Positions 1 to 10,317 of a stretch of DNA of 11,376 bases are shown piece by piece. A model generated the notes under the pieces. The model was given only the letters and a program-made list of their open reading frames with translations, was not told where the DNA came from and did not search any database. Source of the DNA: Candidatus Bathyarchaeota archaeon (GTDB taxonomy: Archaea > Thermoproteota > Bathyarchaeia > RBG-16-48-13 > GCA-020355125); the NCBI GenBank assembly GCA_026014905.1, contig JAOZHK010000258.1, positions 1 to 11,376 of the forward strand, given 5' to 3'. Numbering within the stretch: position 1 is the stretch's first letter; every line of letters starts with the position of its first letter. Both the position numbers and the translations under genes were made by a program.

Positions 1-216
1 GAAAAGGGCAAACCAAATCGATTGTAACACTGAAAATACTCCCATGATCACGAACCACGCGAGGCCAGCTAATACACGAAAACCTGTCCACAAGACAATG
101 CCCACGATCGCAACTGGAATCAATGACACAAGGAAGGGAACAAGAAACAGTGCCAGCATGCCAACGACAATCAGCCCAATTACACCTATTAAACCTACAA
201 TGAACACGCTTAACAT
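1..216 (-). CDS. Hydrophobic multi-span membrane protein, N-terminal part (cut by window edge)
   Basis: An open frame runs on the minus strand from an ATG at 214-216 to the window edge without a stop, giving 72 residues. The translation is almost entirely hydrophobic: it starts MLSVFIVGLIG and has about three likely membrane segments (residues 4-26, 28-46 and 50-70), with one Arg (residue 47) as the only charged residue. An in-frame TAA lies 12 codons before this ATG, so the start is close to right; a weak GAG sits about nine bases upstream. A TATA-like stretch around 265-275 could serve as its promoter, divergent from the gene at 445. No family is recognised and the function is unknown. The overlapping plus-strand frame at 44-352 is rich in Thr, Pro and Asn and looks like the antisense shadow of this gene. 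Confidence 0.6.
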   Translation of the reverse strand, partial: MLSVFIVGLIGVIGLIVVGMLALFLVPFLVSLIPVAIVGIVLWTGFRVLAGLAWFVIMGVFSVLQSIWFALF

Positions 217-444: not shown

Positions 445-1647
445 ATGAAAATTATAGATTTAAAGTGCGCGATCGTTGAAGGTTATCCTCTAGTCCGGGT
501 CGATACAGATGAAGGTATTAGCGGCTTTGCTCAAATCGAGTTTCCTAAAAGGAACTATATCAAGCCTCATGTCCTCTTTTTCAAGCCAACTATCATCGGA
601 ATGGATCCAACTAATATCGAACGTATCCGAGTGCACATACGCCGGTTTGGCGCATATAAACCCTGGGGTAGTGCGGTCAGCGCCATCGAGATTGCGCTTT
701 GGGATATCGCTGGGAAAACTGCGGGACTACCTGTGTATCGACTTCTTGGAGGAAAGATTCGTGATAAAGTTCGGGTATATTGCGGAGGAGCTGGTCCTTC
801 ACTAAAAGGGTCAATGCCAGAAGATTATGCAGAGAATGCTCGGGCAAAGAAAGCTCTTCCAGAGAACTTCAGCATCATCAAATTCCCTATCGCATTCCAT
901 GGTCGTATGTTCGAAACCATCCCAAATTATTTTTACGGAGAAATAGAATCTCGCACCAAGTTCTCGCATCCTGAGAATCGAGGACAGCTCACTGAACATG
1001 GGCTTCAACACACCATAGCATGTGTAAAAGCAATTAAGGAAGTCTTAGGCGACGAGATAGGAGTCGCTCTCGATTGTGGACCAGGATTATCTGTGCCATC
1101 CACTCTTCGACTCGCCCAAGCAGTAGAATCCTTGAAGGTCGCGTGGTTGGAGGATACGATAACTGGTGACTATACCCCCTATACCGCAGTCAACGCCTTT
1201 CGACAAGTCTCCGCGAACACCAGCACCCCCATTCATACCGGAGAGCAGATCTACCTGCGACAAGGATTCAAAGAACTGATTGCACAAAACGCGGTGGATA
1301 TTGTTGGACCCGATCCGTGTGACGTGGGTGGACTCGCTGAGCTGAAGTGGATTGCGGAATACGCCGACCTGTATCATATCCTCATCGCTCCCCATGGCGT
1401 GTTTGATGGAATTCTTGGCCGGGCTGCTCTTGTCCAAGTTTGCGCAACACTACCAAAAAATTATATCGCCTTTGAACTGCCACGGATTGAACCAATTTGG
1501 TGGAGCCTCATCAAAACACATCCTCCCTTAGATGTCCATGATAGCTATATCGAAGTATCGGATCGCCCGGGACTTGGGGTGGAATTGAATGAAAAAGCGA
1601 TTCGAAAGCACCTACCGAAAAACGACGATTTCTTTGATAATAGCTAA
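445..1647 (+). CDS. Mandelate racemase/muconate lactonizing enzyme family protein (enolase superfamily), probable sugar-acid dehydratase or epimerase
   Basis: This 400-residue protein has the two-domain enolase-superfamily layout: an N-terminal capping domain (about 1-115) and a modified TIM barrel. Visible active-site positions are a strand-2 Lys146 in IIKFPI, metal-ligand candidates Asp210 (VALDCG), Glu236 (WLED) and Glu267 (HTGEQ), a His-Asp dyad of Asp290 (GPDP) and His317 (APHG), and a late Glu344 (AFELP). That pattern belongs to the mandelate racemase subgroup, which abstracts a proton next to a carboxylate using Mg2+; most members act on sugar acids such as galactonate, gluconate or fuconate. 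The strand-2 motif is K-F-P rather than K-x-K, so the second lysine is absent. The ATG at 445 follows GGGG at 434-437. It is first of three co-directional genes. Substrate cannot be read from sequence; family assignment is firm. Confidence 0.93.
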   Translation: MKIIDLKCAIVEGYPLVRVDTDEGISGFAQIEFPKRNYIKPHVLFFKPTIIGMDPTNIERIRVHIRRFGAYKPWGSAVSAIEIALWDIAGKTAGLPVYRLLGGKIRDKVRVYCGGAGPSLKGSMPEDYAENARAKKALPENFSIIKFPIAFHGRMFETIPNYFYGEIESRTKFSHPENRGQLTEHGLQHTIACVKAIKEVLGDEIGVALDCGPGLSVPSTLRLAQAVESLKVAWLEDTITGDYTPYTAVNAFRQVSANTSTPIHTGEQIYLRQGFKELIAQNAVDIVGPDPCDVGGLAELKWIAEYADLYHILIAPHGVFDGILGRAALVQVCATLPKNYIAFELPRIEPIWWSLIKTHPPLDVHDSYIEVSDRPGLGVELNEKAIRKHLPKNDDFFDNS

Positions 1648-1700
1648 TAGAATTGAAAACGAAGTGCTATGTATAGTAGATAACGTGAATTGATCGTTCA

Positions 1701-1712
1701 ACGCGCGCGCGT
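1701..1712. repeat. Intergenic GC-alternating palindrome, copy 1
   Basis: ACGCGCGCGCGT is a perfect 12-base palindrome in the 116-base gap between the two racemase-like genes. It directly abuts an AT-rich TATA-like box. An identical 12-mer occurs at 10306-10317. The role is unknown. Confidence 0.75.
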
Positions 1713-1723
1713 ACTTTAATATG
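1713..1723 (+). promoter_or_regulatory. TATA-like box upstream of the second racemase-like gene
   Basis: ACTTTAATATG starts right after the GC palindrome and lies about 46 bases before the GTG at 1764. Archaeal spacing would put transcription start near 1743-1747, leaving a leader of about 20 bases containing the AGAGGAGAG ribosome binding site. This suggests the second gene can be transcribed separately from the first. Inference from consensus only. Confidence 0.4.
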
Positions 1724-1763
1724 TTAGTGAACTCAAATAATTAGATTCGAAGAGGAGAGAAAC

Positions 1764-2930
1764 GTGAAAATTGCTGATGTCGAGCCGATCATCGTCGACG
1801 CAGGATGGCAAACATGGATCTTCGTAAAAGTCACTACTGATGAGCAAATTGTGGGATGGGGTGAATGCAGCCAACCACGAGCCCCATTAGCGGTTGCAGC
1901 TGCAGTAAGAGATTTCAAGCGCATTATCACAGGTAAAGATCCACGTAGCTTTGAGATGAGGTTTTGGGATATGGAACGCTTAGCCATCCAAGGCTGGTCA
2001 GGCGTTCGAGCTATGGCACTGGCAGGCATTGAGTTAGCCCTTTTAGATATCAAAGCCAAAGCTCTTGGAATCTCTGTTATCGAGTTATTCGGAGGTCCCA
2101 CTCGGGACCGTGTTCGCGTCTATTGGTCACACTGTGGAACCACTCGAGCGAGTTATCCACAGTTAGGAAAGCCCCCTATACAAACCATGGATGATATTAC
2201 CAACCTAGGACAAGAGGTGGTCCGCCGAGGATACACTGCACTTAAAACCAACATTATTTTTCCAGGCGATCCAGCCACCGTGTATCGTAACGGGTTCCAG
2301 GGAGGACTTGGAACGACGGATCAAGTTGTATCCAAAACAATGTTGAACCACATCGACACACTCATCGGTACATTCAGGAATGCGGTTGGACCCGATGTAG
2401 ATATTTGTCTTGATCTTAACTTCAACTTCAAACCTGAAAGCTGTAAGAGGATTGCACAAGTCCTTGAGCAGTACGAACTTTTATGGCTTGAAGTCGATAT
2501 GTACGATCCCAAAGCCATACTCGAAATCAAACAATCCACGACGACGAAGATATGTACTGGTGAGAACTTGATTTACATGCGGGAGTACTTACCATATTTC
2601 AGATGCCGCGCCGCTGACGTGTTTATGATTGATGTTCCTTGGAACGGATTTAGTCAATCAAAGAAAATTGGTGACCTGGCTCAAGTCTTTGAATTTAATG
2701 TCGCCCCGCACAATTACTACAGCCACCTATCAACCTTTATTAGTGCCAGCTTATGCGGAGTGTTACCCAACGTTCGCATCATGGAAACAGATGTTGATGC
2801 CCTTCCAATCAAAGATGAACTCGTTACAAACGTTCCGAAAATTGTGAATGGCTACATGAAGATGCCGACTGCCCCTGGTTGGGGAACCACCATCGTCGAA
2901 GATGTGGCGAGAGCTCATTCCTGGAAATAG
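1764..2930 (+). CDS. Second mandelate racemase/muconate lactonizing enzyme family protein
   Basis: This 388-residue enolase-superfamily protein starts at GTG 1764, preceded by a strong AGAGGAGAG at 1751-1759. The capping domain covers about residues 1-120. Barrel positions are Lys161 in ALKTN (K-x-N), metal-ligand candidates Asp217 (CLDLN), Glu243 (WLEVD) and Glu267 (TGEN), dyad Asp290 (MIDVPWNG) and His316 (APHN), and Glu341 (METD). All key metal and general acid/base positions are kept, so it should be an active Mg2+-dependent proton-abstracting enzyme on an alpha-hydroxy or sugar acid. It differs strongly from its upstream neighbour (K-x-N against K-x-P, IDVPWNG against GPDPCDVGG), so it is a paralogue with a different substrate or step, not a recent duplicate. 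It follows the first gene by 116 bases and precedes the propeller gene by 54. Exact substrate unknown. Confidence 0.93.
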   Translation: MKIADVEPIIVDAGWQTWIFVKVTTDEQIVGWGECSQPRAPLAVAAAVRDFKRIITGKDPRSFEMRFWDMERLAIQGWSGVRAMALAGIELALLDIKAKALGISVIELFGGPTRDRVRVYWSHCGTTRASYPQLGKPPIQTMDDITNLGQEVVRRGYTALKTNIIFPGDPATVYRNGFQGGLGTTDQVVSKTMLNHIDTLIGTFRNAVGPDVDICLDLNFNFKPESCKRIAQVLEQYELLWLEVDMYDPKAILEIKQSTTTKICTGENLIYMREYLPYFRCRAADVFMIDVPWNGFSQSKKIGDLAQVFEFNVAPHNYYSHLSTFISASLCGVLPNVRIMETDVDALPIKDELVTNVPKIVNGYMKMPTAPGWGTTIVEDVARAHSWK

Positions 2931-2984
2931 ACCCAGTTCGAACTTACTACTTATCCGGATAGTTACCAACTGAGAGGAAAGATC

Positions 2985-3962
2985 GTGATACGCGTAGAAC
3001 GATTAGTCGACCACCCAATTATCAGAGCCGAATTAGATCCCAGCATTGGACAGAACATCCAAGGCCCATCCTTGATACAAGTCCCCCAGTGGGTTAAATC
3101 GCCGTTAGGACGCTACTACCTGTATTTTGCTCATCACAAAGGAACTTTTATTCGCCTGGCTGTTGCTGACGCCCTTAAGGGACCGTGGAAGATTCACATA
3201 CCAGGTACCCTCCACCTCGAGGACTCAAGGTTTCTCACCACACCCCCCATACTCTCAAAACAACAACTCGTCCACATTGAGGCTAAACATGCTCAAAGAG
3301 GCACCTCCATAGGGCACAGCATCGCCTACGAAGTTACCGCACCGCACATCGCCTCACCTGACGTTCATGTAGACCATACTCGCCATCGTATCCGCATGTA
3401 TTTTCATGGATTACACGATGTTGCGACTCAAGTTACACGGGTTGCGGAGTCATCGAATGGCATTGATTTCCAAGTACATCCACCGATATTAGGGCGATCC
3501 TATATGCGCACCTTTGAGTGGAACCAAATGACGTATGCCATGTCCATGCCCGGTCAATTCTATCGCTCAACAGATGGTTTGTCACAGTTCGAGCCAGGCC
3601 CGCTTCTTTTCAACCCAAATATGCGTCATGCTGCACTCTTACTTCGAGAAAGCATATTGTACGTATTTTGGACGCAAGTTGGACATGCACCAGAACGCAT
3701 TCTTATGAGTACTATAGATCTCCGTCAGGATTGGATGCAGTGGCAAGCATCTAAACCTATCGAAGTACTGCGCCCAGAGCGGGATTGGGAAGGAGCCGAC
3801 GCACCCCTTGAACGTTCGATACGCAGTACGGCGTATGGTCAGGTCAATCAGCTACGTGATCCTGCAATCTACACCGAAGATAAACGCGTCTTCCTGCTGT
3901 ATGCCGTAGCCGGAGAAAGCGGCATTGCTTTAGCTGAAGTTGAATTTGATGATGTGCACTAA
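2985..3962 (+). CDS. Beta-propeller glycoside hydrolase-like protein (GH43/GH117-like fold)
   Basis: This 325-residue protein begins at GTG 2985 with a good GAGAGG at 2972-2977. Repeated propeller-like signatures are visible: GPSLIQVP with YYLYFAHH (residues 27-51), IRLAVADALKGPW (56-68), ASPDVHVD (123-130), MYFHG (138-142), SSNGIDF (156-162), FYRSTDG (192-198), MRHAALL (213-219) and LRDPAIY (290-296). This pattern resembles the five-bladed propeller glycosidases of the GH43/GH32/GH117 type. Candidate acidic residues are Asp126, Glu269 and Asp292, but the catalytic set cannot be fixed by eye. No signal peptide is seen, so it probably acts inside the cell. Its place directly behind two racemase-like genes suggests it releases or processes the sugar they act on. 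Fold class is fairly sure; activity is inference. Confidence 0.8.
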   Translation: MIRVERLVDHPIIRAELDPSIGQNIQGPSLIQVPQWVKSPLGRYYLYFAHHKGTFIRLAVADALKGPWKIHIPGTLHLEDSRFLTTPPILSKQQLVHIEAKHAQRGTSIGHSIAYEVTAPHIASPDVHVDHTRHRIRMYFHGLHDVATQVTRVAESSNGIDFQVHPPILGRSYMRTFEWNQMTYAMSMPGQFYRSTDGLSQFEPGPLLFNPNMRHAALLLRESILYVFWTQVGHAPERILMSTIDLRQDWMQWQASKPIEVLRPERDWEGADAPLERSIRSTAYGQVNQLRDPAIYTEDKRVFLLYAVAGESGIALAEVEFDDVH

Positions 3963-3986
3963 TTAACACTGCTAATAACCACTATA

Positions 3987-4001
3987 TTCTCATGATGAGA
4001 A
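3987..4001. terminator. Small inverted repeat between convergent genes
   Basis: TTCTCATGATGAGAA has 7-base arms around a single G (effectively a 5-base stem with a 5-base loop). It sits in the 66-base gap between the propeller gene (+) and citrate synthase (-). It could help end both transcripts, but it has no strong T run and is a weak candidate. Confidence 0.3.
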
Positions 4002-4028
4002 CCCCAAGTTACTCACTTGCACACGCTG

Positions 4029-5150
4029 TTATCTGTCATCGAGATGCAGGTAACTTCGAGTTTCATCCCCACAATATGCCTGTAATGGTCGAATCAATTT
4101 GTTGTGCTGATATTGATCCAGCATGTGCGTCGTCCAGCCGGCAATACGACTCATGGTAAACATATTGATGAATTGATCGTCAGGAATTCCTAGATTTGTA
4201 TAGACGGATCCTGCATAGAAATCGACGTTGGGATACAATCCTTTTTTCTGATAGACAATGTCAGCCAACAGATCCGATCGCGTTACCCAAGTATTGCCTG
4301 TCAAGTCGTCAAGTTGTTGCGCCAGCTTACGTAATTCAACGGCTCGAGGATCCATGGTTTTATAGACACGATGCCCGAAGCCCATGATTTTCTCTCCGCG
4401 GAACAGTTTATCCTCAACCCACTGCGTGATTGCAGTTTGGTCTTTACTTTCCAACTCGCGAAGCATATTTATCACTTGCTGGCTGGCACCTCCATGTAGG
4501 GGACCGAAGAGAGTGCCTGTTGCCGCGACGACACAAGCGTACATATCTGAGAGCGTAGATGCCGAGATCCGTGCAGCAAAAGTCGACGCATTGAGCGTAT
4601 GTTCGGCATGTAATATCAAAGCTAGGTCAAGTGCTTTCACAGCAATTGCACTAGGTTCTACTCCGTTCAACATCCAGAGCACATTAGCAGCATGACTCAG
4701 ATCCTCGCGTGGAGGAATAATTGGAGTCTTATTACGGATATTCTGATGGTACGCAATGATCGTTGATGTTTTTGCAATCAAATCCTTTGCTTTTCGCAAG
4801 TTTTCTTCGGGCGAGATCGTTTTCAGCTGGGGATCCAGTGAACCTAGACACGAAATCGCAGTTCGATAAATGACCGAGGGATGTGTGAACGAGGGTAGCT
4901 GATATAGCACATCGACGATCTTTTCAGGAAGTTTGCGCCGTGTCGCGAGCTCATCACAAAATCCAGTCAAGTTGAATCGTGTTGGTAACTGTTTATAGAG
5001 CAATAAATACGCGACTTCTTCAAACGATGCATAAGTTGCTAAATCATGGATATTATATCCTCGATATTCAAGAGTCCCTGTGGTTCCATCGACTCGTGAA
5101 ATATCCGTTTCTAGGGCAACAATGCCTTGTAATCCATGATTGACAAGCAT
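4029..5150 (-). CDS. gltA: Citrate synthase (short archaeal/Gram-positive-like type)
   Basis: The protein condenses acetyl-CoA and oxaloacetate to citrate, the entry step of the citric acid cycle, in the cytoplasm. Counting from the ATG at 5148-5150 it has 373 residues, the usual size for this short type. Conserved features are GLQGIVALET with EYRGYNI at the N terminus, catalytic His184 in HAEHTLNAST, the GPLHGGA loop (216-222), catalytic His260 in GFGHRVYK, catalytic Asp310 in YPNVDFYAG, and Arg335 and Arg354 for substrate carboxylates. The same frame is open up to an ATG at 5286-5288, but those 46 extra residues show nothing family-like, and a GC tract and a TATA-like box fall inside that stretch, so I chose 5150. 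A 2-methylcitrate synthase role cannot be excluded by sequence. It stands alone, convergent with the propeller gene. Confidence 0.95.
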   Translation of the reverse strand: MLVNHGLQGIVALETDISRVDGTTGTLEYRGYNIHDLATYASFEEVAYLLLYKQLPTRFNLTGFCDELATRRKLPEKIVDVLYQLPSFTHPSVIYRTAISCLGSLDPQLKTISPEENLRKAKDLIAKTSTIIAYHQNIRNKTPIIPPREDLSHAANVLWMLNGVEPSAIAVKALDLALILHAEHTLNASTFAARISASTLSDMYACVVAATGTLFGPLHGGASQQVINMLRELESKDQTAITQWVEDKLFRGEKIMGFGHRVYKTMDPRAVELRKLAQQLDDLTGNTWVTRSDLLADIVYQKKGLYPNVDFYAGSVYTNLGIPDDQFINMFTMSRIAGWTTHMLDQYQHNKLIRPLQAYCGDETRSYLHLDDR

Positions 5151-5172
5151 CCCACACACCCATGTGATCGAT

Positions 5173-5186
5173 CTTATTATTATTAT
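5173..5186 (-). promoter_or_regulatory. TATA-like box for citrate synthase
   Basis: On the minus strand ATAATAATAATAAG is centred about 29 bases before the chosen ATG at 5150. That is the distance expected for an archaeal TATA box driving a leaderless or nearly leaderless transcript, and it supports the shorter gene start. The bases just before the ATG (GGGTGTGTGGG) are at most a weak ribosome binding site. Confidence 0.45.
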
Positions 5187-5198
5187 CGGTACATGGCG

Positions 5199-5207
5199 GC
5201 GCGCGCG
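5199..5207. repeat. Intergenic GC-alternating tract, copy 2
   Basis: GCGCGCGCG followed by T lies about 50 bases upstream of the citrate synthase ATG, on the upstream side of its TATA-like box. It would be coding only if the long unconserved N-terminal extension were real. Confidence 0.65.
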
Positions 5208-5426
5208 TTGGGAGAATGAACAGCAAATTCCCTCCAAAACCGTTCTCTCTACCATCATTAGCAAAGAATTACGGAACCGAGGATTCAAATTCGTAGGCGC
5301 AACGACGACTTATGCGTACATACGAGCTATTGGAATGGTGAATGATCACCTTGTTCATTTTTTCAGACACACAGAAGTGCAGAGCCGTCAACCTTCAAAT
5401 TCATTAAATAGATAACATCAAACTAT

Positions 5427-5446
5427 GGCACTCGTTTCCGAGTGCC
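5427..5446 (-). terminator. Hairpin terminator downstream of flavodoxin
   Basis: GGCACTCG-TTTC-CGAGTGCC is a perfect 8-base stem with a 4-base loop, 22 bases beyond the flavodoxin stop on the minus strand. The minus-strand sequence after it is T-rich (ATAGTTTGATGTTATC). It is the strongest hairpin in the window and probably ends the flavodoxin transcript, separating it from citrate synthase. Confidence 0.55.
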
Positions 5447-5453
5447 GATATCA

Positions 5454-5463
5454 CGCGCGCGCG
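5454..5463. repeat. Intergenic GC-alternating tract, copy 3
   Basis: CGCGCGCGCG lies five bases beyond the flavodoxin stop codon and seven bases from the hairpin at 5427-5446. Its left flank (ACGCGCGCGCG) matches the 12-base palindrome, but the right end is GG rather than GT. Confidence 0.75.
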
Positions 5464-5468
5464 GAACA

Positions 5469-6041
5469 TTATAGATTAAGCTTTCCTAAAGGCAGCACTC
5501 GGTGCAAGCGACGTAATATGCCTCGTACTCTCCCTCCCACCTCAAGCAAATCGTGCTCATCCGGTCTTTGTCGAATGTCTCCAAATCGACCTTCGGTGTT
5601 ATAGGATTCATCGGCTTCGGGGAAAAACCCGACTGATGCGATGTAATCGACTACTCGAATACCTTCATGTTCAAAGTACTGTCCAATGTTCTTCAGCATC
5701 GGTACCGCCTCACTGTATCCTGTATGTCCACCTCCAAACGTACAGAACGGAACAGCGGCAATACCCGGTATTTCCGGTGCGGAAGCCAAAATTTGAACTC
5801 CATCACGTCTCCTATTCCTACGTAAGAAAGAGAGAACAGGCGCGGGCGACAAGTTGTGATAGACCGGAGCTCCCAGAAAGATCAAATTGTAGTCAAGGTA
5901 TTCAATCTCGGTGTCTTTATTAATGCGCGATATAGACACCTGCATTCCCGCTTTTTGCAATGTATCGTAAATACGTCGGGCAACTTTTTCCGTGTTACCA
6001 TTCTTGGTCCAAAACAGGACAATTGCTTTTCCTTCAGGCAT
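5469..6041 (-). CDS. Flavodoxin family protein
   Basis: This 190-residue protein has the flavodoxin fold. The FMN phosphate loop is FWTKNGNTEKVARR (T12, N14, G15, N16, T17), the second flavin-contact strand is FLGAPVYHNLSPAPV (55-69), and a third conserved turn is FCTFGGGHTGYSEA (99-112). It is longer than classic flavodoxins (about 140-150 residues); the extra C-terminal part contains GDIRQRPDEHDL (154-165) and ends in an arginine-rich helix (RVRGILRRLHR, 171-181). It probably carries electrons as a one-domain FMN protein; partners are unknown. The ATG at 6039-6041 follows AAGG about ten bases upstream on the minus strand. It is divergent from the PPOX-type gene across 221 bases. Confidence 0.9.
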   Translation of the reverse strand: MPEGKAIVLFWTKNGNTEKVARRIYDTLQKAGMQVSISRINKDTEIEYLDYNLIFLGAPVYHNLSPAPVLSFLRRNRRRDGVQILASAPEIPGIAAVPFCTFGGGHTGYSEAVPMLKNIGQYFEHEGIRVVDYIASVGFFPEADESYNTEGRFGDIRQRPDEHDLLEVGGRVRGILRRLHRVLPLGKLNL

Positions 6042-6141
6042 CGTTCATTCCTTCAAACAATAAGATTCATGCATACAATATTAAATTTTCATCTCTATGA
6101 GAAGAGTAGATAGCAATTGAAGACATGCGCACGAAATAACC

Positions 6142-6229
6142 TGACCAATGGTGTACCCATGACCAAATACGTTGACAAGTCAACAGGTTGAAGCTAAGCA
6201 CGTATAGATACACAAAAATTTGAAATTTT
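6142..6229. promoter_or_regulatory. Cluster of operator-like repeats between flavodoxin and PPOX genes
   Basis: Three symmetric or repeated elements crowd this divergent region. TGACCAA occurs at 6142-6148 and again at 6160-6166 (18 bases apart). GTTGAC-AA-GTCAAC at 6171-6184 is a perfect 6-base-arm inverted repeat. AAAATTT-G-AAATTTT at 6215-6229 has perfect 7-base arms. The last two lie about 80 and 35 bases before the PPOX start, plausible operator or core-promoter positions. This may be a shared switch for the two flavoprotein genes, but no regulator gene is adjacent. Confidence 0.4.
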
Positions 6230-6262
6230 AGAAGCACGATGTGATAACCGAGGAAAGAAGAT

Positions 6263-6697
6263 TTGGCTCTTAAAGTATGGGGAGGACGTCACCTCACTAG
6301 AAAAGAAGTCGACGTTTTTCTCGCCGAGACGAAGATCGCGCGATTCTGTTGTCTCAATGATAATGGAACAATCCACGCAACCCCTGTGTGGTTTATCTAT
6401 ACAAACAGAAAATTCCTCATCCTAACACCAGATCAAAGTCGTAAAGCTAAAAATGTCAAACACAACAACAATGTCACGATTCTCATCGACACCGAAGAGC
6501 CCCCTCGAGGCATCATAATCTACGGTACCGCCACACCTGAGACCAACTTCAAATTAGAACCAACAGTCATCTCCCTATGTGAAAAATACATGTCCAGAGA
6601 AAAAGCACACGAGCAATGGCGAAGCGTATGCCCCCCTACCACAAAATGGATGAAAATAACTGTCACACCTATGAATATGACTTCATTTACATACTAG
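6263..6697 (+). CDS. PPOX-class (pyridoxamine 5'-phosphate oxidase-like) split-barrel flavoprotein
   Basis: This 144-residue protein starts at TTG 6263, placed by a clear GAGGAAAG at 6250-6257. It has the small split-barrel layout: an N-terminal helix LTRKEVDVFLAETKIARFCC (11-30), the strand pair NGTIHATPVWFIYTN (34-48), LILTPDQSRKAKNVKHNNNVTILID (52-76) with the Ser-Arg-Lys-Ala-Lys phosphate-contact pattern, and GIIIYGTATP (83-92). Relatives bind FMN, F420 or heme and carry out redox chemistry or act as general stress proteins; true pyridoxine phosphate oxidase is unlikely at this length. In an archaeon an F420 or FMN partner is reasonable. It is divergent from flavodoxin and convergent with the THEP1 gene. 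Confidence 0.88.
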   Translation: MALKVWGGRHLTRKEVDVFLAETKIARFCCLNDNGTIHATPVWFIYTNRKFLILTPDQSRKAKNVKHNNNVTILIDTEEPPRGIIIYGTATPETNFKLEPTVISLCEKYMSREKAHEQWRSVCPPTTKWMKITVTPMNMTSFTY

Positions 6698-6703
6698 TTA
6701 GCG

Positions 6704-6749
6704 AAAAAACTCAGCTAGATATTGTGGGCGCGCGCATCCACTTCCCACA
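6704..6749 (-). terminator. Hairpin plus T-run downstream of THEP1 gene
   Basis: On the minus strand, TGTGGG (6744-6749) pairs with CCCACA (6723-6728) across 15 bases, and a run of six T follows at 6709-6704. The hairpin loop contains a GC-alternating tract. It lies between convergent genes and could end the minus-strand transcript; in the plus direction there is no T run. Confidence 0.35.
6728..6735. repeat. Intergenic GC-alternating tract, copy 4
   Basis: GCGCGCGC lies between the convergent PPOX and THEP1 genes, overlapping the loop of the 6723-6749 inverted repeat. A separate perfect palindrome, TTAGCTAGCTAA (6755-6766), overlaps the THEP1 stop codon nearby. Confidence 0.7.
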
Positions 6750-6762
6750 GTCAGTTAGCTAG

Positions 6763-7347
6763 CTAAAGCTTGCACACTCTACCGGACTGATTGGAAAAGC
6801 AAGTTGTCTTGTGATATAGAGTTCTTATCATGTCAAAGACAGTTTCGTGAAGTTGCCGTCGATTCGCTAATGTAACTTCAACAATATGTATCTGCGGTGT
6901 TGTATGAATCACGGAGATTAATGGATCGCGTGCTCGATGATGGAGAACTCCAATAAGGATCTTCGAGCTTTGCAGAGCCCGTATGACGGTTTCCTTAAAT
7001 GCTGCCGAATATAATTCCATCGGTCCAACTTCATCAACGATGACGACATCTGCGGTCTCAATCGCACTCTGGATAGCTGTTACTCCGATGTGTTGAAGGT
7101 CGTGGATATTAACTCGATATTTACCGACTGATGGCCCTGATTCTTCATGGATGTGGGCAAGCCATCCACTTCGACCACTTGTAATATCGATCAATCGAAA
7201 ACCCACTCTGGTTGCGCCTCTTCGCGCTTCTTGACTGATCATCCCTCCGACACGGAGACCCTGATTCTTTAATCTCTTAATGACTCGAAGCAGAACACTT
7301 GTTTTGCCTACGCCTGGACGCCCTGTCAAGAAAATACGTCGACTCAT
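6763..7347 (-). CDS. THEP1-type nucleoside-triphosphatase
   Basis: This 194-residue P-loop protein matches the NTPase/THEP1 family, common in archaea and similar in size (about 170-195 residues). The Walker A motif is GRPGVGKT (9-16). GGMISQEARRGATRVGFRLID (34-54) is a family signature. The Walker B block VVIVDEVGPMEL (101-112) has Asp105 and Glu106 and is diagnostic. Known members hydrolyse NTPs slowly to NDPs in vitro, and their cell role is unsettled. The short C-terminal tail after residue 180 includes two Cys (183, 192) and is not conserved-looking. The ATG at 7345-7347 has an AAGAAGAA-type purine run upstream. Single gene, convergent with PPOX and divergent from the small membrane protein. 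Confidence 0.93.
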   Translation of the reverse strand: MSRRIFLTGRPGVGKTSVLLRVIKRLKNQGLRVGGMISQEARRGATRVGFRLIDITSGRSGWLAHIHEESGPSVGKYRVNIHDLQHIGVTAIQSAIETADVVIVDEVGPMELYSAAFKETVIRALQSSKILIGVLHHRARDPLISVIHTTPQIHIVEVTLANRRQLHETVFDMIRTLYHKTTCFSNQSGRVCKL

Positions 7348-7475
7348 ATCTTACATTCTTCTTAATATGCCTCTAAGTAACAAGTCAATACTCTAAACTG
7401 GAATTTAAGACTAGTTAGCAACAAGTTCACCAATGATGCACGCGCCATTAAAATAGTGATTGACGATTGATAGCC

Positions 7476-7484
7476 CTTTTAAAG
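7476..7484 (+). promoter_or_regulatory. TATA-like box for leaderless transcript
   Basis: CTTTTAAAG is centred about 27 bases before the ATG at 7507, and no ribosome binding site precedes that ATG (CAATTCAGTATCTAGT). The spacing is what an archaeal promoter starting transcription at the A of the ATG would have. Confidence 0.5.
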
Positions 7485-7506
7485 TCATTTCAATTCAGTA
7501 TCTAGT

Positions 7507-7704
7507 ATGCCTCGACGGAAACGCATGAATGTTACCAATGTGATTGTTGTGTTTGTCACCTTTGTTGTTGGATATTATCTCACACCCTATGTCAAAGCCT
7601 CGATCACCCAAACCGAGCCTCGTATTGATGAACAATTAGCAGGTGCACTCGCGACAGGTGTTGTTGGGGTGACACTAATCTGGGTACGAGAGAAGTTACG
7701 ATAA
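7507..7704 (+). CDS. Small two-span membrane protein, unknown function
   Basis: The 65-residue protein has a basic N terminus (MPRRKR), a first hydrophobic segment at about 10-29 (NVIVVFVTFVVGYYLTPYV), a short polar loop with TQTEPRIDEQ (34-43), and a second segment at about 44-60 (LAGALATGVVGVTLIWV), ending in REKLR. By the positive-inside rule both ends should face the cytoplasm. The ATG has no Shine-Dalgarno but a TATA-like box at the right distance, so the mRNA is probably leaderless. No family is recognised. It is a lone gene, divergent from THEP1; coding status is supported by the clear hairpin topology and the promoter. Confidence 0.65.
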   Translation: MPRRKRMNVTNVIVVFVTFVVGYYLTPYVKASITQTEPRIDEQLAGALATGVVGVTLIWVREKLR

Positions 7705-7750
7705 TATCTTATAGAATATTTACACGCATGCTTTAAGATCATAGTAAGTT

Positions 7751-7787
7751 AGCTCGCCTTTGTGCCGGTGCGCGTATAAGGCTAGCT
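7751..7787 (+). terminator. Hairpin downstream of small membrane protein
   Basis: AGCTCGCCTT (7751-7760) pairs with AAGGCTAGCT (7778-7787) at nine of ten positions around a 17-base loop. It begins 46 bases after the stop of the small membrane gene and is followed by AT-rich sequence. It may be a terminator or a structured leader of the next gene. Confidence 0.35.
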
Positions 7788-7856
7788 CAATCTTAATATT
7801 TCTGGATTCAAACCAAATTCTTATTCATACTCAAATGACCATGAGGTGGGCTTCAC

Positions 7857-9101
7857 CTGAGAGGGATTGATGACTTCAAAGATTTCTGGCAGAGACAGTC
7901 GAGAAACTATAAAGTATTTCTCGCTCAGGATACAGTAGCAAAACTCTCAGGGATGGATAGTAATGAATATTGGTCTGTATTTATCAGGCGTTTAGGCGCA
8001 ACGACCGTTGAGATGGGGTTAATCAGCAGCGTTAGTAGTGCGGTGAACACGATACTTGCTCTGCCTTCGGGCTGGTTAACAGATCGGAGTCGAAATTTGA
8101 AGCGACTTTATCTCATCGGGCGAGCATCTTCTGTCCCAATCGCGTTGATGCGCTTCCTCGTGACAACGTGGCCATTCTGTGTTCTTATCAGTGTATACGA
8201 AACCATTGCCCTGAGACTTATGAATCCTGCATCAGACATCATTTCAATTAAATCACTCAGCAATCAAGATCGTGTCAAAGGATTATCAATTCATCGACTA
8301 GTCACGTCCCTTGCGGGCATAATTGGCCCCTTGATCTTAGCCCTTATCGTCACGTTTTTCGGTGGTCTGGATTCCGCGGATGGCATTCGACCACTCTTCT
8401 TTATTCAGTTCCTCCTCGGCATCTGCGTCTTTGCCCTCATGGCAACCCAATTACAAGGTGTCACTTTTACAAGAACGAGACGTGGAGGTAATATAATCAG
8501 CCACTTCATCACGGTGTTTCGAGAATCCCCTATACTAATGTTACTTCTCCTTCGAGATGCATTCGTGAGATTTGCGTGGCAAATCCGGACACCGTTTCAG
8601 GGAATATATTTAGTTGATGTAAAAGGTGCAGACCAATTCATCTTGGGTTTGAGAGGAACGATCTCAACAGCCATTACTATCTGCTTTTCAATACCTGCAG
8701 GTTATTTAGCTGAAACAATGGGTCGGAGACGACTTGCCTACATTACCCGTATCTTTTGGTGGATGGGTCTATTAATCACCATCTACACCCCGTCAACCCA
8801 CCCCGAATACCTGATCCTAGCCAGCGCTCTCCAAAGTTTGAATATGGTTATGTTTGTCGGGTGGTCCGCCTTCACCCAAGAAATTATCCCCTTATCAGCA
8901 AGAGGGCGGTGGTCTGGCGTCAATATGCTAGTAAATGGTCTCGTTGGTATCATTGCTCCACTAATCGGAGGAATCGTCTGGAGCCTTAACCCTGATTATA
9001 TTTGGTGGATCAGCTTGGTCTGTGATGTATTCATCATTCTTCCAGTAATGATTCTAATAGGCTATAAAGTCTCTAAAGTAGATGCGTATCAGTCTGAATA
9101 A
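7857..9101 (+). CDS. Major facilitator superfamily transporter
   Basis: Coding from the first ATG at 7953 gives 382 residues, but that starts at the end of the first membrane segment. The same frame is open and family-like further up (FWQRQSRNYKVFLAQDTVAKLSG just before that Met), back to a TGA at 7842-7844. A near-ideal GAGGTGGG at 7843-7850 lies six bases before an in-frame CTG at 7857, so I place the start there (414 residues, normal MFS length). An ATT at 7866 or an indel are alternatives. In the 382-residue numbering, motif A GWLTDR is at 40-45, repeated in the second half as GYLAETMGRRR (250-260). About 12 membrane helices are expected. Substrate unknown; a role in sugar-acid uptake is only a guess. 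Convergent with the GNAT gene. Confidence 0.88.
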   Translation: MRGIDDFKDFWQRQSRNYKVFLAQDTVAKLSGMDSNEYWSVFIRRLGATTVEMGLISSVSSAVNTILALPSGWLTDRSRNLKRLYLIGRASSVPIALMRFLVTTWPFCVLISVYETIALRLMNPASDIISIKSLSNQDRVKGLSIHRLVTSLAGIIGPLILALIVTFFGGLDSADGIRPLFFIQFLLGICVFALMATQLQGVTFTRTRRGGNIISHFITVFRESPILMLLLLRDAFVRFAWQIRTPFQGIYLVDVKGADQFILGLRGTISTAITICFSIPAGYLAETMGRRRLAYITRIFWWMGLLITIYTPSTHPEYLILASALQSLNMVMFVGWSAFTQEIIPLSARGRWSGVNMLVNGLVGIIAPLIGGIVWSLNPDYIWWISLVCDVFIILPVMILIGYKVSKVDAYQSE

Positions 9102-9110
9102 GCGCGCGCG
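9102..9110. repeat. Intergenic GC-alternating tract, copy 5
   Basis: GCGCGCGCG begins at the base after the TAA (9099-9101) of the transporter gene. It lies in the 129-base gap between convergent genes and is not part of a hairpin that I can see. Confidence 0.7.
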
Positions 9111-9168
9111 GAATTGACTGTGTACCCGAATTCGTGTTTGTTGTGTTCAAGGCGTATGAGCAAGAAAC

Positions 9169-9185
9169 TTTCTTTTAATTTTTCT
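9169..9185 (+). terminator. T-rich archaeal-type terminator after MFS gene
   Basis: TTTCTTTTAATTTTTCT lies about 70 bases beyond the transporter stop. Archaeal RNA polymerase often terminates at such T-rich tracts without a hairpin. The opposite strand ends the GNAT gene at 9231. Confidence 0.4.
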
Positions 9186-9230
9186 ATGAATTCAAGGAAT
9201 CGCATAATCGATCATCTTATTCGTTGTTCG

Positions 9231-10031
9231 TCAACAATCCTTTTTTCTTCCGCGCATAAGGAAGTATGATTTGTACGGCGTGAAGCCCACTTTCTGGTAC
9301 ACGTGAATGGCGGGAGCGTTATCTGCTCGGACGTGAATAAGTGCTTGGGTTTGTTTCTCAAGAAGGTCTGTTACAGCATGTGATAACGTGGCTGTTGCGA
9401 GACCTTGATTGTGGTGTGTGCGTGCTGTTGCGACGATACTCACCCAGCCGACCCATTCTGAGAAGCGGTAGCTGCTAACCGAGATGAGATGTGGGCTTTT
9501 GATGCCGATCCATTGAAAGTTAGGCAACTTCTGCAGAATTCGTTGTTCAGTCATGTCGCCCCAGAAGCTAGGATCCGCCTCTCGCATGACTGTAGCGATG
9601 TCGGAGGCATCAGATTCATGTAGTTGTGTGACCGGGTATGCGCTCTGAGGTGTGACGCGTTCCTTATTGAGTGTCATAGCCATGAGTGTTGTGTCGAGAG
9701 TCGTCGGTGAAAAAAATTGCAGAACTCTGTGTTTGTACTGCGGTGGTGCAAGAAGTTCCACTTCTTTAAGGTCAATAGATGCAAGGAACGCTTCGATTGC
9801 CTGGGATTGGCCGCGAAGGTTTATGATGCGCTGATTATAGGTTAACATCATACCGATGATGTGGTTGTTGTGCAGGGCGAGTGTGATTTGTGTCTTGGAC
9901 TTTTCATGGACCCAGTCTAAGGCGTAGAAAAAGTATTGTACAATATCTTGGTGAACGTGTTGCCAGAAAAGAGGCTCATGTTGTGAGGTAAGAGGGACAA
10001 TCTTCATTCTTTGATCGAACCATACCTGCAT
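9231..10031 (-). CDS. GNAT family N-acetyltransferase
   Basis: The 266-residue protein has a C-terminal GCN5-related acetyltransferase domain (about 135-258). Motif A includes VGWVSIVATARTHHNQGLATA (194-214) with the acetyl-CoA pyrophosphate loop Q209-G210-L211-A212, and motif B is VRADNAPAIHVYQKVGF (234-250). The first 130 residues look like the degenerate N-terminal lobe common in two-lobed archaeal GNATs. It moves an acetyl group from acetyl-CoA to an amine, but the acceptor cannot be told. The start is the ATG at 10029-10031, nine bases after the upstream remnant's stop; GAGGAG lies about 15 bases upstream, inside that remnant, so translation may be coupled. Met9 (ATG at 10007) is an alternative start. 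Confidence 0.88.
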   Translation of the reverse strand: MQVWFDQRMKIVPLTSQHEPLFWQHVHQDIVQYFFYALDWVHEKSKTQITLALHNNHIIGMMLTYNQRIINLRGQSQAIEAFLASIDLKEVELLAPPQYKHRVLQFFSPTTLDTTLMAMTLNKERVTPQSAYPVTQLHESDASDIATVMREADPSFWGDMTEQRILQKLPNFQWIGIKSPHLISVSSYRFSEWVGWVSIVATARTHHNQGLATATLSHAVTDLLEKQTQALIHVRADNAPAIHVYQKVGFTPYKSYFLMRGRKKDC

Positions 10032-10040
10032 CTGTTTGTG

Positions 10041-10271
10041 CTAGCGCTCCTCGTTACCCTCGTTAACTTTCTCGATGCTGTGCGCGAGACCTTTCATATA
10101 GCCTAAAGCTAATACTTTAGCAAGTTGAAAGTGTTGGTCTGGACTACCCATGCGATCATCTTCCTGAACTTTCGGTGCATGATCGGGTCGCATAGGTCCG
10201 TAGAAATCCACATCGTAATACGCTTTCATGGCATCATACATATCAATGTGCCCAGCGTCATTATAATGTAC
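10041..10271 (-). pseudogene. uxuA: Mannonate dehydratase (UxuA) C-terminal remnant
   Basis: From the ATG at 10239-10241 a 66-residue frame reads MYDAMKAYYDVDFYGPMRPDHAP near the start and QLAKVLALGYMKGL near the end, the signature C-terminal end of mannonate dehydratase, which removes water from D-mannonate to give 2-keto-3-deoxygluconate. The family match continues upstream of the ATG as NDAGHID, up to two stop codons (TAG 10272-10274, TAA 10275-10277), where it ends abruptly. Full enzymes have about 350-390 residues, so most of the barrel and active site are missing. It is therefore a 5'-truncated relic, perhaps kept only as the leader of the GNAT gene, which starts nine bases after its stop. 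A domesticated small protein is possible. Confidence 0.7.
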
Positions 10272-10295
10272 CTATTAGAAATTATTTGTACATTA
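10264..10295. repeat. Perfect 8-base inverted repeat at the uxuA break point
   Basis: TAATGTAC (10264-10271) is mirrored by GTACATTA (10288-10295) across 16 AT-rich bases. The left arm ends exactly where the mannonate dehydratase homology stops. It could be an operator, a hairpin or a scar of the event that removed the 5' part of the gene. Confidence 0.5.
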
Positions 10296-10305
10296 CACTT
10301 TGAAA

Positions 10306-10317
10306 ACGCGCGCGCGT
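10306..10317. repeat. Intergenic GC-alternating palindrome, copy 6
   Basis: ACGCGCGCGCGT, identical to the 12-mer at 1701-1712, lies about 65 bases upstream of the uxuA remnant's ATG on the minus strand and about 214 bases before the Isf-type gene. Confidence 0.75.

What the first reader, a model, noticed from the sequence alone, without database searches (positions are those of the whole stretch)
1701..10317. Six alternating GC tracts confined to intergenic DNA
Tracts with a GCGCGCG core occur at 1701-1712, 5199-5207, 5454-5463, 6728-6735, 9102-9110 and 10306-10317. Two are the identical palindrome ACGCGCGCGCGT. In an 11.4 kb window of balanced composition an 8-mer is expected about 0.2 times, and these are confined to the roughly 2 kb of intergenic DNA, with none in supported genes. 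Three lie on the 5' side of genes and three at 3' ends or between convergent genes, so they are not simply promoters or terminators. Possible roles are a chromatin or regulator binding site, a modification-system target, a Z-DNA former or transcription boundary, or a dispersed repeat comparable to HIP1 in cyanobacteria.
Basis: partly seen in the sequence, partly recalled or inferred. Interest (0 to 1): 0.72.

Follow-up and report, generated by a model that had tools for sequence, protein, structure and literature searches.

The report
GC palindromes dispersed between archaeal genes
Short mirror-symmetric GCGCGCGC words sit between the genes of this uncultured archaeon far more often than chance allows, and two distantly related archaea carry the same kind of word with their own fixed end letters, which points to a site read by an unknown DNA-binding or DNA-modifying protein.

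Summary
Confirmed and extended. All six tracts lie in the window's 2,124 non-coding bases; tract-masked Markov models expect 0.01-0.19. Absence from genes is uninformative (0.13 expected). No genome of the window's lineage is held, so kin were tested. The window-phase word is missing from 373 of 398 genomes of one archaeal phylum, but two of them, in the window's clade of an NTPase tree, show the same kind of excess: GCGCGCGC is their top non-coding 8-mer (70 vs 1.8 and 58 vs 2.0), tracts 44- and 30-fold over expectation. End letters are genome-specific: A(GC)nT in G671 (42 of 46 arms), T(GC)nA in G759 (25 of 32), unbiased at n=2. Slippage or a pure Z-DNA preference does not predict that; recognition by a symmetric protein does. 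Gene orientation does not matter, so neither promoter nor terminator. Closest known kind: cyanobacterial HIP palindromes, but concentrated in non-coding DNA and sparser. The protein is unknown; methylation and Z-DNA remain open.

The parts
1701..1712 (.). alternating-GC palindrome ACGCGCGCGCGT (core 1702-1711), about 50 bp upstream of the GTG (1764) of the second enolase-superfamily gene
5199..5207 (.). alternating-GC tract GCGCGCGCG, about 50 bp upstream of the citrate synthase ATG (5147, minus strand)
5454..5463 (.). alternating-GC tract CGCGCGCGCG (flanks A and G), 5 bp beyond the flavodoxin stop, same gap as the 5199 tract
6728..6735 (.). alternating-GC tract GCGCGCGC between convergent PNPOx-like and NTPase_1 genes
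9102..9110 (.). alternating-GC tract GCGCGCGCG starting on the base after the MFS gene's TAA, between convergent genes
10306..10317 (.). alternating-GC palindrome ACGCGCGCGCGT (core 10307-10316) in the gap between divergent GNAT and FMN-reductase genes, just beyond a truncated gene remnant
7437..7445 (.). near-miss word TGCACGCGC (purine-pyrimidine alternation kept). Non-coding near-miss 8-mer positions, overlaps counted: one with a single A/T (7438) and seven with two (352, 372, 4019, 6126, 7437, 7768, 10079)
   Evidence: seven against 1.26 expected (P 3e-4); one against 0.37; the transversion control class has four against 1.44 (P 0.06)

Best explanation
The tracts are copies of one dispersed, palindromic, intergenic word with an alternating-GC core, about W(CG or GC)4-5W. 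Shown: it is in great excess in the window's non-coding DNA; the same kind of word is in great excess in the non-coding DNA of two held genomes that share a clade with the window in an NTPase tree; in each of those the letters closing the core are nearly fixed but differ between genomes (A..T in one, T..A in the other); position is indifferent to gene orientation. Inferred: each copy is a site recognised as a symmetric unit by a sequence-specific DNA-binding (or DNA-modifying) protein that drifts in specificity between lineages, more likely a genome-wide organiser or modifier of intergenic DNA than a regulator of particular genes. Few copies are expected inside genes because the word forces codon pairs that are rare here. 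Not shown: the protein, occupancy, or any effect.
For: Window: 6 tracts against 0.01-0.19 expected, 0.037 by another estimate (O/E 161). Kin: non-coding O/E 44 in G671 (34 tracts in 103 kb) and 30 in G759 (25 in 94 kb), coding O/E 4.0 and 1.9; GCGCGCGC is the top non-coding 8-mer in both out of all 8-mers. Fixed ends: G671 A in 36 of 46 arms at n=3 (P 7e-9) and 42 of 46 at n>=4 (P 9e-15), no bias at n=2 (107 A, 101 T of 270); G759 T in 23 of 32 (P 9e-5) and 25 of 32 (P 4e-6), no bias at n=2 (80 T, 86 A of 208); no bias at n=3 in coding DNA of either. In G671 A(GC)nT per Mb of non-coding DNA is 184, 126, 145, 29, 0 for n=2..6 while T(GC)nA is 165, 0, 0, 0, 0. Orientation-indifferent. Copies spread over the sampled G671 stretches as chance would (chi2 33.5, df 39). 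Kinship: G671, G759, G946, G311 and three named Bathyarchaeia proteins join the window in one NTPase clade (98/94 support). Control: 104 kb of non-coding DNA from loci under 55% GC (bacterial but for at most one archaeal locus) has 0 tracts, 0.5 expected.
Against: The window's lineage is known here from 11.4 kb only, and its phase and flanks (A(CG)5T twice, A..G once) differ from both kin, so sharing one cause is inference. G671 and G759 were picked because they had the highest counts of the reversed control pattern among 398 genomes, so their excess is post-selected, though the A-versus-T end bias is not. The excess is sporadic: forward pattern in 25 of 398 and 52 of 394 genomes, at most 3 and 6 each; G311, in the same NTPase clade, has 0 tracts in 17 kb of non-coding DNA and G946 2 in 17 kb. 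Counts depend on the ORF cut-off: 34 of 45 G671 tracts are non-coding with ORFs of 100 aa, 24 of 45 with 70 aa. Coding DNA is not free of it: GCGCGCGC is 26 against 4.0 in G671 and 16 against 3.8 in G759 coding DNA, and coding arms at n>=4 in G671 are A in 12 of 16; mis-called ORFs could explain this but were not checked one by one. In G759 other all-G/C 8-mers are also 2.1x in non-coding DNA. Variants of the G671 word keep purine-pyrimidine alternation, which Z-DNA would also predict. G671 sits on a long branch whose place the tree program calls unsure. No candidate protein was found.
Confidence: 0.5

Rival explanations
1. HIP-like methylation word: a cytosine methyltransferase recognises GCGC or CGCG, and methylation plus biased repair creates and maintains longer palindromes; decayed copies arise by C-to-T change at CpG.
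For: In G671 one-mismatch variants of AGCGCGCGCT inside the core are mostly transitions at the CpG positions (5, 6 and 5 sites for the three mirrored pairs, 0.13-0.18 expected each) and none are transitions at the non-CpG G2 or C9. One-transition variants are 4.0x and 4.4x expected in non-coding DNA of G671 and G759, one-transversion variants 0.6x and 1.1x. In cyanobacteria alternate GC-rich palindromes go with cognate methyltransferases (PMC4390886, abstract and passages).
Against: No C5-methyltransferase motif in the sampled ORFs of window, G671, G759 or G946, though the samples are partial and the regular expression crude; ORFs with a [DNS]PP[YFW] motif, which amino-methyltransferases share with other proteins, number 0, 8, 11 and 2 and were not followed. 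HIP words are reported at 1000-2000 per Mb (passage); here 329 per Mb of non-coding and 16 per Mb of coding DNA in G671. Methylation alone does not explain the fixed A or T ends.
Confidence: 0.18
2. Z-DNA: the property under selection is left-handed DNA in supercoiled gaps between genes; alternating GC is simply the strongest former.
For: GC runs are the classic Z-formers (PMC4060949 section 3.6, read). In the kin's non-coding DNA the excess of purine-pyrimidine alternating 8-mers falls with A+T content: 31, 4.4, 2.0, 1.2 in G671 and 27, 8.3, 3.4, 1.7 in G759 for 0-3 A/T. The window's ACGCGCGCGCGT and G759's TGCGCGCGCA extend the alternation.
Against: G671's usual ends (A before G, T after C) break the alternation; pure CA/TG runs are not in excess in G671 (2 against 3.8), though they are in G759 (30 against 10.1). 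End letters are genome-specific. The 2014 survey found Z-promoting patterns generally suppressed in prokaryotes (abstract passage).
Confidence: 0.17
3. Dinucleotide slippage: (GC)n microsatellites expand by replication slippage and are purged from genes because they shift the frame.
For: Concentration in non-coding DNA is expected for dinucleotide repeats; GC and CG are reported as the most frequent dinucleotide repeats in bacteria (PMC12699852 passage). In G759 the length series T(GC)nA does fall steadily (182, 85, 64, 43, 11 per Mb for n=2..6).
Against: Slippage does not care about the flanking base, yet A(GC)nT and T(GC)nA are equally common at n=2 and one of them nearly disappears at n=3 and above. 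In G671 n=4 is as common as n=3 and the longest run seen is 11. Near-miss variants keep the length and change letters.
Confidence: 0.07
4. Chance, contamination or assembly artefact.
For: Only 11.4 kb, and a self-trained order-3 model gives P 0.063.
Against: All tract-masked models expect at most 0.19; the tracts sit in different surroundings; the same class of excess appears in two other assemblies at P below 1e-27.
Confidence: 0.03

Closest known systems
Highly iterated palindromes (HIP1 GCGATCGC and alternate HIPs) of cyanobacteria
   Same: Short GC-rich palindrome in great excess, dispersed, with lineage-specific alternatives and lineage-specific flanking letters (PMC4390886, abstract and passages)
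   Different: Here concentrated in non-coding DNA; sparser genome-wide in the kin (45 tracts in 789 kb of G671 and 30 in 515 kb of G759, about 57 per Mb, against 1000-2000 per Mb); core is pure alternating GC; no cognate methyltransferase found
Repetitive extragenic palindromes (REP/BIME) of bacteria
   Same: Palindromic, between genes, many copies (over 100 per genome in PMC2817692, start of abstract in listing; G671 extrapolates to roughly 100)
   Different: 10-14 bp with no longer conserved body; a REP-type transposase was not searched for
Z-DNA-promoting GC8 patterns of prokaryotic genome surveys
   Same: Defined as alternating G-C of 8 or more (PMC4060949 passage); every tract meets this
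   Different: Such patterns are generally suppressed in prokaryotes in that survey; here in large excess, with ends that break the alternation in one genome
Dinucleotide microsatellites (GC)n
   Same: Repeat unit and rarity in genes
   Different: End letters nearly fixed, and in G671 the length is capped

Membership tests
HIP-type highly iterated palindrome | short GC-rich palindrome far above expectation | tested here: met
HIP-type highly iterated palindrome | 1000-2000 copies per Mb of genome (passage), in genes too (recalled) | tested here: not met
   G671 16 per Mb coding, 329 per Mb non-coding; G759 12 and 267. Window 2,825 per Mb non-coding but 0 coding
HIP-type highly iterated palindrome | cognate DNA methyltransferase in the genome | tested here: inconclusive
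   motif scan of partial genome samples found no C5-type enzyme
REP/BIME element | extragenic, palindromic, many copies | tested here: met
   for G671 and G759 (samples)
REP/BIME element | 20-40 nt imperfect stem-loop body, often with a REP-associated tyrosine transposase (size recalled) | tested here: not met
   flank preference ends one or two letters outside the core; transposase not searched
Z-DNA-forming GC8 pattern | alternating G-C of at least 8 nt | tested here: met
   definition in PMC4060949
Z-DNA-forming GC8 pattern | adopts left-handed DNA in the cell | not testable with these tools
   needs footprinting
GC dinucleotide microsatellite | flank-independent, monotonically decaying length distribution | tested here: not met
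   flanks biased in both kin; length series not monotonic in G671, monotonic in G759

The most novel reading that the evidence does not exclude
A family of archaea around the Bathyarchaeia carries a lineage-evolving intergenic punctuation word: a GC-alternating palindrome, at up to about one intact or near-intact copy per larger gap between genes in the window's lineage, read by an as yet unknown symmetric DNA-binding or modifying protein whose specificity for the closing letters changes between lineages, as alternate HIPs do in cyanobacteria, but concentrated in non-coding DNA.
Probability: 0.3. Interest if true: 0.75.

Novelty: new variant of a known kind. Interest (0 to 1): 0.56.

Why it matters
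Over-represented palindromes such as HIP1 have been known for decades without an agreed function (recalled). Here is an archaeal counterpart concentrated in non-coding DNA, where protein coding cannot confuse the signal, with genome-specific end letters that make recognition by a protein testable: two genomes predict two different binding specificities. It would also be a handle on chromosome organisation or DNA modification in an uncultured archaeal group.

Tried and rejected
Promoter or terminator role: rejected for the kin, because the 24 non-coding tracts of G671 (70-aa ORFs) fall 7 divergent, 7 and 4 co-directed, 4 convergent, 2 at stretch ends, in line with the bases available (22,963; 21,016 and 20,191; 12,868), and the 22 of G759 fall 3, 6 and 6, 5, 2.

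Asgard origin of the window: a search of 227 genomes of the phylum of G001 (a Njordarchaeota MAG) found no close enolase-superfamily relative (best matches 35-38% over about a third of the protein); CGCGCGCGCG is in 29 of these 227. Best NTPase match in 392 archaeal genomes is G311 at 44%. Citrate synthase: nearest named MSBL1 57%, Archaeoglobi 56-57%, Hadarchaeia 55%. So the window is placed near Bathyarchaeia by one gene only.

L108 (G203 contig C267) was first taken for a stray contig of the window's lineage; its tetranucleotide make-up is nearer to G203 (0.47) than to the window (0.25) (script stopped before its last rows), so that was dropped. G847 has many tracts but is 67% GC; its coding DNA is at expectation (O/E 1.2) and non-coding 4.3, so it was not counted as support. 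Of 65 viral contigs with GTWCGCGCGCGCGWAC, the 8 below 52% GC have one tract each; viral scans with the enolase and NTPase proteins gave no relative. No Rfam match at gathering score and no tRNA in the window.

Literature: searches over the held PubMed Central library listed no report, by title and start of abstract, of alternating-GC palindromes in archaeal intergenic DNA; that is the extent of the claim. PMC4060949 seen as passages and section 3.6; PMC12699852 passages; PMC4390886 abstract and passages; PMC2817692 start of abstract in the listing.
Full report
1. The observation. ACGCGCGCGCGT occurs twice, at 1701 and 10306. Pfam supports nine of the ten genes given to it: two enolase-superfamily enzymes, citrate synthase, a flavodoxin, a PNPOx-like protein, an NTPase_1 protein, an MFS transporter, a GNAT acetyltransferase and an FMN reductase; the tenth (2985-3962) had no match. 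Outside 13 gene intervals (these ten plus three further open frames) 2,124 bp remain, and all six tracts lie there.

2. Chance. Simulated non-coding DNA of the same length, trained with tracts masked, gives 0.014, 0.033 and 0.185 runs of eight or more for Markov orders 1-3; six never occurred in 1000 runs of any of these. Trained on the tracts themselves, orders 1-3 give 0.037, 0.544 and 2.88, the last with P 0.063, which is circular but is told here. A closed-form estimate is 0.037, O/E 161.

3. Which organism. No genome is held for the window. The NTPase has metagenome relatives up to 98% and its nearest named relatives are Bathyarchaeia at 52-54%; citrate synthase points to MSBL1 and Archaeoglobi at 55-57%; the second enolase-type gene has listed relatives of 83-99% without organism names and then named bacteria. 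A tree of 117 NTPase rows puts the window in a clade (98/94 support) with three named Bathyarchaeia proteins and with held genomes G759, G946, G311 and, at its base on a long and therefore unsure branch, G671. One gene is a thin basis for placement.

4. The genome-wide test, on kin. CGCGCGCGCG occurs in 29 of 227 genomes of the Asgard phylum. WCGCGCGCGCGW occurs in 52 of 394 genomes drawn over archaeal phyla, at most 6 per genome, and in 25 of 398 of the phylum of G371, at most 3. That phylum was taken as Thermoproteota because genomes of its slot ring for ribosomal protein S25e, whose distribution is recalled. The three sets overlap in part. The window has 2 in 11.4 kb. So its own word is very rare in held archaea. 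In one search the tool's control, the same pattern read backwards (WGCGCGCGCGCW), stood out in four genomes: G671 26, G759 16, G847 13, G946 10 (next highest 6). These were sampled: 789 kb, 515 kb, 72 kb and 110 kb.

5. What the kin show. With mechanical ORFs of 100 aa, non-coding tracts of eight or more number 34 in 103 kb of G671 (0.77 expected) and 25 in 94 kb of G759 (0.83 expected), coding 11 in 686 kb (2.8) and 5 in 421 kb (2.6). With a 70-aa cut-off 24 of 45 and 22 of 30 are non-coding. Over all 8-mers, GCGCGCGC is the most over-represented non-coding word in both (70 against 1.8; 58 against 2.0, both strands); among coding 8-mers it is outside the top 14 in G671 and eleventh in G759 (16 against 3.8), though still 26 against 4.0 in G671. 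G946 is weak (2 in 17 kb, 0.2 expected) and GC-rich G847 (67%) has 13 against 3.1 non-coding and 22 against 17.9 coding. Comparison sets: loci below 55% GC 0 in 104 kb of non-coding DNA (0.5 expected) and 17 against 9.7 coding; loci above 55% GC 6 against 9.3 non-coding; G371 0 in 20 kb, G311 0 in 17 kb, other G203 contigs 0 in 15 kb, Archaeoglobi loci 0 in 6 kb, where so little is expected (0.09, 0.03, 0.02, 0.005) that even a 30-fold excess could be missed; GC-rich Asgard G163 1 against 0.19 non-coding and 7 against 2.2 coding. Viral contigs below 55% GC have 4 against 0.6, but they had been chosen for holding such a word. In G671 the tracts are spread over the sampled stretches as chance would spread them (chi2 33.5, df 39); G759 is somewhat patchier (41.1, df 26). 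G671 and G759 were chosen as extremes of 398, so their excess is post-selected; P values of 2e-43 and 2e-28 absorb that easily.

6. The decisive detail: the end letters. In G671 the base before a GC-phase run, reading both arms, is A in 107 and T in 101 of 270 at n=2, but A in 36 of 46 at n=3 and 42 of 46 at n>=4. In G759 it is A in 86 and T in 80 of 208 at n=2, but T in 23 of 32 at n=3 and 25 of 32 at n>=4. In coding DNA at n=3 neither is biased (20 A, 14 T of 46; 12 A, 11 T of 30); at n>=4 the few coding arms are A in 12 of 16 in G671 and T in 4 of 6 in G759. The selection allowed A or T alike, so it cannot make this bias. Per Mb of non-coding DNA in G671, A(GC)nT is 184, 126, 145, 29, 0 and T(GC)nA 165, 0, 0, 0, 0 for n=2..6; in G759 T(GC)nA is 182, 85, 64, 43, 11 and A(GC)nT 192, 0, 21, 0, 0. 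Slippage from random seeds would lengthen both. Each genome therefore has its own palindrome, AGCGCGCGCT or TGCGCGCGCA, with some further preference outside (T at position 2 in 27 of 46 arms in G671, A in 15 of 32 in G759). The window's three ten-base runs have A in 5 of 6 arms, which suits A(CG)5T but is too few to prove.

7. Near misses. In G671 single-letter variants of AGCGCGCGCT inside the core are mostly transitions at CpG positions (5, 6 and 5 sites for the mirrored pairs, 0.13-0.18 expected each), the transitions at non-CpG positions 2 and 9 are 0, and each transversion inside is 0 to 2; the 15 A-to-C at position 1 are nine-base runs. One-transition words are 4.0x and 4.4x expected in non-coding DNA of G671 and G759, one-transversion words 0.6x and 1.1x; two-transition words 2.4x and 3.3x, two-transversion words 1.6x and 0.7x. 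In the window seven two-transition word positions occur in non-coding DNA against 1.26 expected (P 3e-4), and four two-transversion ones against 1.44 (P 0.06). This fits CpG decay, tolerance by a binding protein, or a need for purine-pyrimidine alternation. In G759, though not much in G671, other all-G/C 8-mers are also in excess in non-coding DNA (2.1x, 1.1x).

8. Reading. Sequence recognition explains genome-specific ends, the preferred length in G671, the spread and the indifference to gene orientation. Z-DNA explains the alternation gradient but not ends that break alternation in G671. Methylation explains the CpG variants but no C5 enzyme was seen in partial samples. Slippage explains only the rarity in genes and the length decay in G759. 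I put recognition by a symmetric DNA-binding or modifying protein first, at about one half, with the methylation-driven and structural readings behind it.

9. Known kinds. The nearest is the HIP family of cyanobacteria, where alternative GC-rich palindromes replace each other and go with methyltransferases (PMC4390886). The density and the presence in genes are not matched, so it works like a HIP but is not filed as one. REP elements share the place, not the body. The 2014 survey of structure-prone patterns reports Z-promoting patterns as generally suppressed in prokaryotes (PMC4060949) and names the archaeon Thermofilum pendens for strong excess of purine-pyrimidine alternation.

Noticed in passing
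window 10038-10270, minus strand: Open stretch reading ...GHIDMYDAMKAYYDVDFYGPMRPDHAPKVQ... looks like the C-terminal piece of a mannonate dehydratase (family named from recall, not searched) without its front; the 10306 palindrome lies just beyond its broken end.
   Followed up: partly
L108 (G203 contig C267) 532, 1641, 2946: Three AGTWCGCGCGCGCGWACT palindromes within 2.4 kb of a contig with an HNH gene and a response-regulator-like gene (below Pfam's cut-off); the only CGCGCGCGCG of that 3.0 Mb Asgard bin, which has no WCGCGCGCGW at all: perhaps a mobile element with its own word.
   Followed up: partly
G671, G759, G847, G946: The tool's reversed control pattern WGCGCGCGCGCW is 26, 16, 13 and 10 while the forward pattern is 0, 2, 0 and 0: the phase of the tracts is genome-specific.
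   Followed up: yes
L113 (IMG/VR contig): Sixteen alternating-GC runs of eight or more in 6.6 kb at 59% GC; L157 at the same GC has 8 in 9.4 kb.
   Followed up: no
window 445-3962: Two different enolase-superfamily genes in a row, followed by a gene without Pfam match that I would guess to be GH43-like (recall), plus the dehydratase remnant: perhaps a sugar-acid pathway cluster shared with bacteria.
   Followed up: no
G671 non-coding DNA: Besides the GC word the strongest non-coding 8-mers are GATTCTAC, GAGAATTG and TAGAATCT, 10- to 18-fold over expectation, possibly a repeat family.
   Followed up: no
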